Below, in pieces: positions 1-5,210 of a stretch of DNA of 35,460 bases. Below the pieces are notes generated by a model, which saw only the letters and a list, made by a program, of their open reading frames with translations, was not told the origin of the DNA and did no database searches. Every line of letters starts with the position of its first letter. Position 1 is the stretch's first letter. Location of the stretch: the NCBI GenBank assembly GCA_944380935.1, contig CALWJF010000044.1, positions 1 through 35,460 of the forward strand. Direction: 5' to 3'. This DNA comes from an uncultured Clostridia bacterium. Its GTDB lineage: Bacteria; Bacillota; Clostridia; Oscillospirales; QAMX01. A program made the translations under genes and the position numbers.

Positions 1-92
1 TTTTTCATAATATGTCTCTTTTTGTAATTTATGTGGCTGTGTTCACTGGGATTTGTTCTCTTGCTGTTATGGCTGGGCTTCCCGGTCCGCAA
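1..92 (-). CDS. Possible small basic peptide, copy A (runs off window edge)
   Basis: A TTG codon at 92-90 lies 7 nt after a perfect AGGAGG on the minus strand. The frame stays open for 30 codons to the window edge. The predicted peptide begins LRTGKPSHNSKRTNPSEHSH and is rich in Lys, Arg, Asn, Ser and His. Its first 19 codons are identical to copy B because they lie inside the 94-bp duplicated element. A promoter sits at 146-174. I do not recognise the peptide. The same transcript could instead be a structured small RNA: CCGCA (just upstream of the ribosome binding site) can pair with UGCGG at the start codon. Nucleotide identity between the copies cannot separate these options. Confidence 0.3.
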   Translation of the reverse strand, partial: MRTGKPSHNSKRTNPSEHSHINYKKRHIMK

Positions 93-127
93 GAATTCAC
101 CTCCTGGATGCGGCGCATACAGACTTC
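34..127 (-). repeat. 94-bp direct repeat, copy A
   Basis: Bases 34-127 are identical over 94 bp to 264-357 (offset 230), and similarity stops abruptly on both sides. On the minus strand each copy begins 12-13 nt after the predicted transcription start and carries the ribosome binding site, the TTG start and 19 codons. The offset is not a multiple of 3, so the plus-strand reading of the two copies falls in different frames; the long plus-strand ORF across them is therefore unlikely to be real. Confidence 0.95.
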
Positions 128-145
128 TTTCTATTCTGCAATTTC

Positions 146-174
146 ATTATGGCATATACATCTTTTTTTTTCAA
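146..174 (-). promoter_or_regulatory. Sigma-A promoter in front of repeat copy A
   Basis: On the minus strand TTGAAA (174-169) is followed by a 17-nt spacer and CATAAT (151-146). TGC lies immediately before the -10, giving an extended -10. Transcription would start about 12 nt before the 94-bp repeat. Confidence 0.6.
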
Positions 175-216
175 TTTATTTTCTGCATAAATTTCATTAT
201 TTTTATATATTTTTTT

Positions 217-250
217 AACCAAGCTTTATTTTTTAAAATAAAGCTTGGTT
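217..250. repeat. 16-bp perfect inverted repeat after small-ORF copy B
   Basis: Arms 217-232 and 235-250 are perfectly complementary with a 2-nt centre. The copy B ORF stops in the centre of the palindrome (TAA at 235-233). On neither strand is the hairpin followed by a U tract, so it is not a standard intrinsic terminator. It may act as a 3' stabilising stem-loop or a protein-binding palindrome. Confidence 0.85.
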
Positions 251-322
251 TCTCATATTCCTTTGGCTGTGTTCACTGGGATTTGTTCTCTTGCTGTTAT
301 GGCTGGGCTTCCCGGTCCGCAA
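233..322 (-). CDS. Possible small basic peptide, copy B (29 aa)
   Basis: The TTG start at 322-320 lies 7 nt after AGGAGG, and the stop TAA is at 235-233. The first 19 residues match copy A; the last ten differ and end in the palindrome. It has its own promoter at 377-405. It could be a peptide gene or a small RNA; the function is unknown and I recognise no family. Confidence 0.33.
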   Translation of the reverse strand: MRTGKPSHNSKRTNPSEHSQRNMRNQALF

Positions 323-357
323 GAATTCACCTCCTGGATGCGGCGCATACAGACTTC
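264..357 (-). repeat. 94-bp direct repeat, copy B
   Basis: Identical over 94 bp to 34-127. The flanking DNA on both sides is AT-rich and unrelated between the copies, yet both copies keep a promoter at the same distance (the -10 begins 19-20 nt before the element). Confidence 0.95.
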
Positions 358-376
358 CTATCATATTCATATTTTT

Positions 377-405
377 ACTATAGCATATTCATAATTTTTT
401 AACAA
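377..405 (-). promoter_or_regulatory. Sigma-A promoter in front of repeat copy B
   Basis: On the minus strand TTGTTA (405-400) is followed by a 17-nt spacer and TATAGT (382-377), with TGC directly before the -10. The geometry is the same as in front of copy A although the sequence between differs. Confidence 0.6.
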
Positions 406-480
406 TAGAAAAACCGGATAAATTTTATGTTTTTTATATAGATTTTGCACAGCAGTTTTTTTATTGCAATTCAGTCGGCG

Positions 481-516
481 CATAAAATGACCCCCGTACT
501 GCATACAGCACGGGGG
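481..516 (-). terminator. Intrinsic terminator of the lipoprotein gene
   Basis: On the minus strand a stem of CCCCCGT paired with ACGGGGG, extended inward by CTG/CAG, spans 516-491 and is followed by a T-rich run. It begins about 20 nt after the lipoprotein stop codon. Confidence 0.7.
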
Positions 517-534
517 TTGGTAATCCTGTTGAAC

Positions 535-1242
535 TTAACTTTCCAATCGGTCGAGCATCATGGAAATGCCGAGCTGCACCATGACCTCCTGGTCATAACC
601 CTGGTCGGCGGTCAATGCGAAGCTGGACATACCGATTTCCGCGAGTACGCCGCTGTTGAAGAACTGGCAGGCATAATGCCCACCCGCCGTCAAAAAGCTG
701 TCCTTATCCGCAGAACCGTAGGTCTGGTAGGAAGATCCTGTTTCCGCTGCGTCTGTGCTTTCATCGATCGGCTGCGCGCCGGTTTTTTCAATAAAATCAT
801 TCATAAACGCATAAGCGATATCGTAACCCTCGCTCGGCGTTTCGACATTTATATAGACATTGTATGTAACATTGCGAAGCGCATCGTCATAAAACGTGAA
901 CAGCAGGCGGAAGGGAAGATCTTCCCCGAGTTCTGCATAGCAATAGTGCTCCTGCGTAACCATTTGCGTCATTTCGCTTGCACCCTCGACGGGCGAAGTC
1001 TCCGCATCCAATGTATACGTGTTGAGGGCGAGCAGTTCCTCTTCCTCCAGATCGATGATGGCAAGCACATCTTCAACGCTCATGCCGTATGCAAAAAACA
1101 GGCTGTCGGTATATTCTCCATCCAAAATAATTTCTTCATAAATACTCCGCATCCCGGATTCTTCTTCTGCCTCTTCTGAAGTCGTGCAGCCTGCAAGCAA
1201 AAAGACAAAAGCAAGGGTGGCAATTGCGAGTTTTTTCAACAT
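535..1242 (-). CDS. Putative secreted lipoprotein of unknown function
   Basis: The 235-residue product starts MLKKLAIATLAFVFLLAGC, a lipoprotein signal peptide with an LAGC lipobox. Cys19 would be lipidated and the rest anchored outside the membrane. A low-complexity Glu/Ser/Thr linker follows (about 20-30), then a soluble domain of about 200 residues that I do not recognise. The domain is acidic and mixed alpha/beta in appearance. The ATG at 1242 has AAGGAG 7 nt upstream. The gene has its own promoter (1438-1466) with an unusually long leader of about 190 nt and its own terminator, so it is monocistronic. No transporter genes adjoin it, so a substrate-binding role is not supported. Confidence 0.85.
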   Translation of the reverse strand: MLKKLAIATLAFVFLLAGCTTSEEAEEESGMRSIYEEIILDGEYTDSLFFAYGMSVEDVLAIIDLEEEELLALNTYTLDAETSPVEGASEMTQMVTQEHYCYAELGEDLPFRLLFTFYDDALRNVTYNVYINVETPSEGYDIAYAFMNDFIEKTGAQPIDESTDAAETGSSYQTYGSADKDSFLTAGGHYACQFFNSGVLAEIGMSSFALTADQGYDQEVMVQLGISMMLDRLES

Positions 1243-3375: not shown

Positions 3376-4116
3376 TCAGCGGAAATACATCTCCCGAATT
3401 ACAAGGATGACAAACAGCGCAACCGGCTGATGGATCAGATATACCCAAAGGCTCCAGCGCCCGACTTTTTCCAAAAACGCGCAGCGCATCTGGTAAAACC
3501 ATGCAGGCAGGCGGTGCTGAAAGATGTACGGCCCGGCCCAGGCGCCCAGCAGATAAACGAAAAACCACGGAAGCAGCGGGTAATAATCCGCAGAAACGAA
3601 CGCCGCGTTTTCAAAACCGAACAGCCAGAACCATCCGGACTCCGGTACGACAGCGGCAGTCAGCCAGGTAAACAGCGCCGTCAATCCTGCCCACAGTACG
3701 GGCGCAAGCGTATGCGGGATACGCGCAAGCGCAGGACGCACCAGCGCATACAGGATAGCGCAGACGGACAGGCAATGCAGGATCCCGAAAACGATAAAAT
3801 TGGAAGGGTTGTTCAAAAACGTAACCAGCGTCACCACAAGCGAAATAGCCGCAAGCTGCAGGCCGCGGCGCAGGTTATTGCGCGATACCGAAGCGCTTGC
3901 CCCGGACAGCAGGACAAACAGATAGGCGCCCAGGTAATGCAGCGCCATACGCACCGGATGCGTCATTGCACCGGGGAATACATGCAGATAAGTCACGCAG
4001 TCATATAAAATATGGTCGCCGATCATGCCCAGGATCAGTATGCCGCGGATCAGGTCCAGCGCGTGGATGCGCTCCTTCGGCGATGGGCCGGTCTGGGGAA
4101 GCGGAATGCGCAGCAT
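3376..4116 (-). CDS. Membrane protein, DUF1624 / HGSNAT-like acyltransferase family
   Basis: The 246-residue multi-spanning protein has about seven hydrophobic segments. The N-terminal RIHALDLIRGILILGMIGDH and the following LSGASASVSRNNLRRG resemble the DUF1624 / heparan-alpha-glucosaminide N-acetyltransferase catalytic family, which moves acyl groups across membranes onto sugars. The C-terminal WSLWVYLIHQPV is also typical. The substrate is unknown. The start codon overlaps the ychF stop by one base (TGATG), so translation is probably coupled; the operon terminator follows. The link to ychF and rpe looks like co-transcription and not a shared pathway. Confidence 0.75.
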   Translation of the reverse strand: MLRIPLPQTGPSPKERIHALDLIRGILILGMIGDHILYDCVTYLHVFPGAMTHPVRMALHYLGAYLFVLLSGASASVSRNNLRRGLQLAAISLVVTLVTFLNNPSNFIVFGILHCLSVCAILYALVRPALARIPHTLAPVLWAGLTALFTWLTAAVVPESGWFWLFGFENAAFVSADYYPLLPWFFVYLLGAWAGPYIFQHRLPAWFYQMRCAFLEKVGRWSLWVYLIHQPVALFVILVIREMYFR

Positions 4117-5210
4117 CAGACGTTAAACCGGAACAGGACGACGTCGCCGTCGCGCATCACATAATCACGGCCTTCGCTGCGCAGCAGCCCTTTTTCCTTC
4201 GCCGCCGCCATACTCCCGCAGGCGACAAGATCGTCGAAACTGACGCATTCGGCACGGATAAAGCCGCGTTCAAAGTCGGAATGGATTTTCCCGGCAGCCT
4301 GCGGCGCCTTGGTGCCGCGCGTGATGGTCCAGGCACGCACCTCCTTCGGCCCTGCCGTGAGGTAGGAAATCAGGCCAAGCTGGGTATAACTCAATTGAAT
4401 CAGGCGCGAAAGCCCGCTTTCACTTTCCCCCAGCTCTTCCATAAACAGGACGCGGTCTTCTTCGTCCAATTCGGATAAATCCTGTTCGATTTTGGCGCAG
4501 ATGGGCAGCACGCATGAGCCTTCGCGCGCGGCAATGGCGCATACGGCCTGGTAATATTCATTTTTTTCACCGCTTCGGAACCCGTCTTCGTCGAGATTTG
4601 CCGCATAGATGACCGGCTTTGCCGTAATCAACCCCGCGCCGGCGAGCCATGCGCGTTCTTCGTCGGACTCGCATACGAAGCTGGACGCACGGTTTTCCGC
4701 CTCCAGATGGGCAAGCAGCTTTCGATAAAACGCCGCTTCCACCGCAAGTTTGCGGTCGCCCTTTGCAAGCTTTTCCGTGCGTTCCGCCCGGCGGGTCAGT
4801 GTTTCCATATCGGAAAGAATCAGTTCAAGATTAATCGTCGCAATATCGTCGGCCGGGTCAAGATCGCCGGATACATGGACGACGTTTTCATCCCGGAAAC
4901 AACGCACGACGTGGACGATCGCGTCCACCTCGCGGATATTGGCCAAAAACTTGTTCCCAAGCCCTTCGCCGCGCGACGCGCCCTTAACCAGGCCCGCGAT
5001 ATCGACAAATTCGATTACAGCGGGGGTATATTTTTCCGGATTGTACATCTTCGCCAATACATCCAGCCGCTTGTCCGGCACCGCAACGACGCCGACATTC
5101 GGGTCGATGGTGCAGAACGGATAGTTTGCCGCTTCGGCGGCAGAATTGGTGATGGCGTTAAACAGGGTGCTTTTGCCGACATTCGGCAGCCCTACGATTC
5201 CCATTTGCAT
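4116..5210 (-). CDS. ychF: Ribosome-binding ATPase/GTPase YchF
   Basis: The 364-residue product belongs to the Obg-like universal P-loop ATPase YchF (OLA1). It starts MQMGIVGLPNVGKSTLFNAI with the Walker A motif GLPNVGKS at 7-14. Other features are a switch/G3 segment DIAGLVKGAS, a coiled-coil region in the middle (LILSDMETLTRRAERTEK), and a C-terminal TGS domain ending in GDVVLFRFNV. Length is normal for the family (about 363-366). The longer in-frame ORF to 5459 is rejected because the Walker A start has a ribosome binding site (GGAGG, 9 nt upstream) and the extension overlaps rpe. One base separates it from the rpe stop. Confidence 0.96.
   Translation of the reverse strand: MQMGIVGLPNVGKSTLFNAITNSAAEAANYPFCTIDPNVGVVAVPDKRLDVLAKMYNPEKYTPAVIEFVDIAGLVKGASRGEGLGNKFLANIREVDAIVHVVRCFRDENVVHVSGDLDPADDIATINLELILSDMETLTRRAERTEKLAKGDRKLAVEAAFYRKLLAHLEAENRASSFVCESDEERAWLAGAGLITAKPVIYAANLDEDGFRSGEKNEYYQAVCAIAAREGSCVLPICAKIEQDLSELDEEDRVLFMEELGESESGLSRLIQLSYTQLGLISYLTAGPKEVRAWTITRGTKAPQAAGKIHSDFERGFIRAECVSFDDLVACGSMAAAKEKGLLRSEGRDYVMRDGDVVLFRFNV

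What the first reader, a model, noticed from the sequence alone, without database searches (positions are those of the whole stretch)
34..405. Duplicated small transcription unit: identical 94-nt cores each with its own promoter
Two perfectly identical 94-bp cores (34-127, 264-357) sit in unrelated AT-rich DNA, yet each has a sigma-A promoter with a 17-nt spacer and an extended TGC -10 whose 5' edge is 19-20 nt from the core. Each core holds AGGAGG, 7 nt, then a TTG codon opening a basic peptide frame. A short CCGCA/UGCGG pairing could mask the start codon. Promoter spacing conserved while promoter sequence differs suggests selected units: a small RNA family, or twin small peptides such as a toxin or leader.
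Basis: partly seen in the sequence, partly recalled or inferred. Interest (0 to 1): 0.68.

Follow-up and report, generated by a model that had tools for sequence, protein, structure and literature searches.

The report
Duplicated promoter-leader of secreted-protein operon
Two identical 94-base stretches at the end of this contig are copies of the start of a gene (its promoter plus leader) for a small secreted-protein and lipoprotein operon, probably made by a local duplication and kept alike by recombination, rather than a family of independent small RNAs or toxin peptides.

Summary
In detail: 34-127 and 264-357 are identical (94/94), each behind a sigma-A-type promoter with a 17-nt spacer and TG-extended -10 on the minus strand. 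Two claims fail. The promoter sides are not unrelated: about 88 bp upstream are diverged homologues (62/90 columns identical; no control window comes close), so the repeat is about 182 bp. Copy 1 is not a stand-alone unit either. The window is contig C44 of a fragmented assembly, and its first 127 bases overlap contig C9 exactly. There copy 1 leads into a secreted Cys/His-rich protein gene (reading frame broken here) and a lipoprotein gene with four members in the genome. The same genome holds a second case on C40: a different, 291-bp, 92%-identical promoter-leader pair before two other lipoprotein copies. Relatives' operons have single, unrelated leaders. The core has no unusual fold, no Rfam match and no relative found in 147 genomes, phages, plasmids or 85k species (exact 27-mer). 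Best reading: a partial tandem duplication of promoter, leader and gene start; copy 2 is an orphan upstream copy; the core stays identical by gene conversion or recombination, perhaps with selection. An independent small RNA or peptide from copy 2 is not excluded.

The parts
34..127 (-). Core copy 1: 5' leader of the secreted protein / lipoprotein operon that continues on contig C9
   Evidence: Identical to copy 2; window 1-127 equals C9 1-127 reverse-complemented; followed on C9 by ORF L004:120-455 and lipoprotein L004:579-1253
264..357 (-). Core copy 2: orphan upstream copy of the same leader, no gene of its own behind it
   Evidence: 94/94 identical; about 48 nt further on the homologous promoter region of copy 1 begins
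128..215 (-). Promoter region of copy 1 (TTGAAA 174-169, TGC + CATAAT 151-146, 17-nt spacer)
358..446 (-). Promoter region of copy 2 (TTGTTA 405-400, TGC + TATAGT 382-377, 17-nt spacer), diverged homologue of 128-215 (28 differences in 90 columns)
90..105 (-). Copy 1: AGGAGG (105-100), 7 nt, TTG (92-90); the TTG frame runs without a stop into the signal-peptide ORF on C9
320..335 (-). Copy 2: same AGGAGG / TTG; the frame closes after 29 codons at a TAA inside 217-250
217..250 (.). Perfect 16-bp AT-rich inverted repeat between the units; no T-run that would make it a terminator on the minus strand
1..127 (.). 127-nt exact overlap with contig C9: assembly-graph node; the fork lies exactly at the 5' edge of core 1 (127/128)
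490..517 (-). Terminator-like hairpin that ends the upstream lipoprotein gene's unit
535..1242 (-). Lipoprotein P0003, 38% identical to the lipoprotein downstream of core 1 on C9; own promoter-like site 1466-1438

Best explanation
The repeat is a partial tandem duplication (about 182 bp) of the transcription start of an operon: sigma-A promoter, 5' leader with a strong Shine-Dalgarno sequence, and the first codons of a TTG-started reading frame. Copy 1 drives an operon that continues on contig C9 (small secreted Cys/His-rich protein, frame broken in this assembly, then a lipoprotein). Copy 2 is an orphan copy just upstream that acts at most as a second promoter reading through into copy 1. The promoter halves have drifted by about 31% while the 94-bp core is identical. 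This most likely comes from gene conversion or unequal crossing-over between the two copies, possibly helped by selection on the leader. Shown: duplication, homology of the promoters, sequence continuity into the operon (through the 127-nt contig overlap), a second unrelated leader pair before paralogous genes in the same genome. Inferred: conversion as the cause of identity, read-through, translation from TTG.
For: Repeat spans 34-215 / 264-446, promoter side homologous against shuffled and natural controls. Core 0/94 differences vs 28/90 upstream (Fisher p 1.6e-10), too sharp for uniform drift. C44 and C9 share an exact 127-nt end. Downstream ORF and lipoprotein; four lipoprotein paralogues in the genome. 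Second leader pair on C40, 291 bp at 92%, before lipoproteins that are otherwise far more diverged. Same operon order with single leaders in two related species. No terminator-like site after core 2 on the minus strand. The assembly fork sits exactly at the core's edge, as expected if another DNA context of the core exists in the sampled population.
Against: Gene conversion confined to exactly 94 bp between otherwise 69%-identical flanks is unusual; strong selection could give the same picture. A simple deletion allele should also break the contig at core 2, and it does not. In the C40 pair the leader is not significantly more conserved than its upstream DNA (6/128 vs 15/156, p 0.17). The genome is a draft of 113 contigs, the join to C9 rests on a contig overlap, and no reads or transcripts were available.
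Confidence: 0.62

Rival explanations
1. The core is a functional cis-regulatory leader (attenuator, protein-binding site or leader peptide MRRIQEVNSCGPGSPAITAREQIPVNTA...) held identical by selection; both copies regulate the operon.
For: 94/94 identity against 28/90 changes next to it; leader-first arrangement in all operons seen; overlapping ATG and TTG frames in the core.
Against: Fold no better than shuffles; no Rfam family; leaders of the orthologous operons show no similarity beyond Shine-Dalgarno strings; every one of 94 bases unchanged is more than coding or structure usually demands.
Confidence: 0.2
2. One reading: each unit makes an independent small RNA or a small basic peptide from the TTG codon.
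For: Own promoter for each copy; strong Shine-Dalgarno and TTG in both; copy 2 has no gene behind it.
Against: Copy 1 leads straight into an operon; no terminators; no stable fold; the TTG peptide has no family match; no homologue of the core in relatives.
Confidence: 0.12
3. A mobile repeat (MITE, REP-like or insertion-sequence remnant) inserted twice.
For: Sharp 94-bp identity; perfect inverted repeat at 217-250.
Against: Only these copies in the genome; the repeat includes homologous diverged promoters; the inverted repeat lies beside only one copy; no match in phages, plasmids or viral contigs.
Confidence: 0.03
4. Type I toxin-antitoxin-like pair: hydrophobic plus-strand peptide opposite a minus-strand RNA.
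For: Open plus-strand frames 12-218 and 31-402 exist and are hydrophobic where the DNA is T-rich.
Against: No plus-strand promoter-like site in front of them, no family match, frame not kept between the two copies (230-bp spacing is not a multiple of three).
Confidence: 0.02

Closest known systems
Tandem duplicated promoter/leader regions of paralogous surface-protein genes (general class, from background knowledge)
   Same: Near-identical 5' regions in front of diverged secreted or lipoprotein paralogues; homologous recombination can exchange them
   Different: Only two copies per type here, one copy has lost its gene, and no shuffling of expressed genes was shown
Multicopy small RNAs encoded by repeats (for example Sib/QUAD repeats of E. 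coli, from background knowledge)
   Same: Short, near-identical repeated units each with a promoter, open frames on both strands
   Different: No conserved small-RNA fold or terminator; copy 1 is the start of a longer transcription unit

Membership tests
Multicopy small RNA family | Each copy has its own promoter | tested here: met
   Promoter-like sites at 174-146 and 405-377, minus strand
Multicopy small RNA family | Each copy ends in a terminator or processed 3' end | tested here: not met
   No terminator-like site on the minus strand after either core in the window; on C9 only at 1253-1296, after the lipoprotein. Processing cannot be tested.
Multicopy small RNA family | Conserved secondary structure with covariation | not testable with these tools
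   Only one distinct core sequence known; single-sequence fold z 0.18
Multicopy small RNA family | Match to a described RNA family | tested here: not met
Duplicated promoter-leader of an operon | Homology extends over the promoter | tested here: met
Duplicated promoter-leader of an operon | At least one copy directly precedes a gene on the same strand with no terminator between | tested here: met
Duplicated promoter-leader of an operon | Read-through transcript into the operon | not testable with these tools
   No RNA data
Mobile repeat (MITE/REP) | Dispersed copies with terminal inverted repeats | tested here: not met
   Only the local copies; no inverted repeats bounding the core

The most novel reading that the evidence does not exclude
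The genome keeps recombining leader cassettes: near-identical promoter-leader modules in front of diverged secreted-protein / lipoprotein operons are homogenised or exchanged by recombination, so that operon copies can be switched, duplicated or lost at the leader. The contig fork at the core's edge would then reflect live rearrangement in the population.
Probability: 0.12. Interest if true: 0.5.

Novelty: new member of a known kind. Interest (0 to 1): 0.24.

Why it matters
Mostly as a caution: identical short units at a contig end can be the start of an operon that lies on the next contig. If the recombining-leader reading held, it would show how an uncultured lineage diversifies a family of small secreted Cys/His-rich proteins and lipoproteins that match no Pfam or NCBIfam family.

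Tried and rejected
Relatives of the core by blastn in 147 related genomes, exact 27-mer in 85k species genomes, exact 21-mer in viral contigs, blastn in phages and plasmids: none. 'Third copy' on C9: rejected, it is the same copy seen through a 127-nt contig overlap. Weak core hits on C65 and C88: E 0.15 and 0.5; each lies in a long open frame in one of the six translations, so taken as chance. Common motif between core, C40, G005 and G017 leaders: only Shine-Dalgarno strings and short chance matches, p 0.06-0.47. In-frame TTG extension also seen in G005 but absent in C40 and G017: treated as possible chance. Structure of the lipoprotein P0003: pLDDT 40, unusable. One genome-contig scan with P0003 found no relative. 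Literature searches gave nothing on point.

Full report
What is there. On the minus strand 34-127 and 264-357 are identical over 94 bp. Each follows a sigma-A-type promoter with a 17-nt spacer and a TGC-extended -10. The cores carry AGGAGG, 7 nt, TTG.

The flanks are not unrelated. The 88 bp upstream of the two cores align with 28 differences in 90 columns. Alignment scores exceed all of 1000 dinucleotide shuffles, and all of 4781 natural AT-rich windows from this and related genomes (score 28 against a best of 12). blastn joins core and promoter into one repeat, 34-215 against 264-446. The promoter spacing is therefore conserved because the promoters were duplicated together with the core, not because two unrelated promoters converged.

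The contig ends in the middle of the story. The window is all of contig C44 in a 113-contig, 1.8-Mb, 87%-complete genome. Its first 127 bases equal the first 127 bases of contig C9 in reverse complement, which is the signature of an assembler's k-mer overlap. The apparent third copy, C9:1-94, is therefore most likely copy 1 itself. Read on into C9, the minus-strand sequence of copy 1 meets ORF L004:120-455 (signal peptide) and lipoprotein L004:579-1253, with a terminator-like hairpin at 1253-1296. The TTG frame of core 1 is open and in frame with that ORF.

What the operon is. The lipoprotein has three paralogues, P0003 in the window and two on C40. In C40 and in two species of a related genus (G005, G017) the order is promoter, leader, small secreted protein with a conserved Cys/His pattern (CxxC ... 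C ... TH ... C ... CxxC ... GHxC ... H ... C ... C), lipoprotein. No Pfam or NCBIfam family passes its cut-off. In C9 the second half of the Cys/His pattern (GHYC ... H ... C) lies in another reading frame than the first, so this copy is broken or misassembled. A profile of the secreted protein finds convincing members only in the own genome, G005 and G017 among 295 relatives, and only in the own genome among 391 genomes of the class.

A second pair. On C40 a different promoter-leader (291 bp, 92% identical; leader 6 differences in 128 columns) is repeated: once before a secreted-protein gene and its lipoprotein, once directly before another lipoprotein. The C40 lipoproteins are 25-27% identical to P0002. 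So this genome has two independent cases of near-identical leaders before diverged genes. The leaders of G005 and G017 are single-copy in their genomes and share only Shine-Dalgarno-like strings with the core.

Why identical? The core has 0/94 changes next to 28/90 in the promoter half (Fisher p 1.6e-10). Coding or structural constraint rarely freezes every base, and the fold of the core is not better than shuffles (z 0.18), so homogenisation by gene conversion or unequal crossing-over is the more likely cause; selection cannot be excluded. The contig fork lies exactly at the 5' edge of core 1, which implies that the assembler saw core plus at least 33 bp of downstream DNA preceded by something else. 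Recombination between the copies is the simplest source, but a plain deletion allele should also have broken the contig at core 2, so this is only a hint.

How it works, most likely. P1 transcribes leader 1 and the operon. P2 transcribes leader 2; no terminator-like site is found before P1, so it should read through and add transcripts with a doubled leader. Transcription, read-through and the start codon used are inferences; nothing here measures them.

Verdict. A real repeat, but of an ordinary kind: a partial tandem duplication of an operon's promoter and leader at a contig end, with an interesting hint that leaders are homogenised in this lineage.

Noticed in passing
L020:2589-2878 and 4072-4361 (C40 of the same genome): A second, unrelated near-identical promoter-leader pair (291 bp, 92%) before paralogous genes, with a shared upstream frame MTERRLINHLPGPIRTVVLHFMYITT.
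   Followed up: partly
L020:2871-3287, L041:1070-1465, L042:1082-1480, L004:120-455: Family of small secreted Cys/His-rich proteins next to a lipoprotein in each case seen; no Pfam or NCBIfam match; narrow distribution; the C9 copy has its second half in another frame.
   Followed up: partly
L043:529-2193, L047:532-2211: The lipoprotein profile also matches the C-terminal part of BlaR1-type M56 peptidases; in L047 the gene before it matches the penicillinase repressor family, hinting that the lipoprotein domain may be a sensor domain.
   Followed up: partly
window 217-250: Perfect 16-bp AT-rich inverted repeat with a 2-nt loop between the two units, not a terminator by its tail.
   Followed up: no
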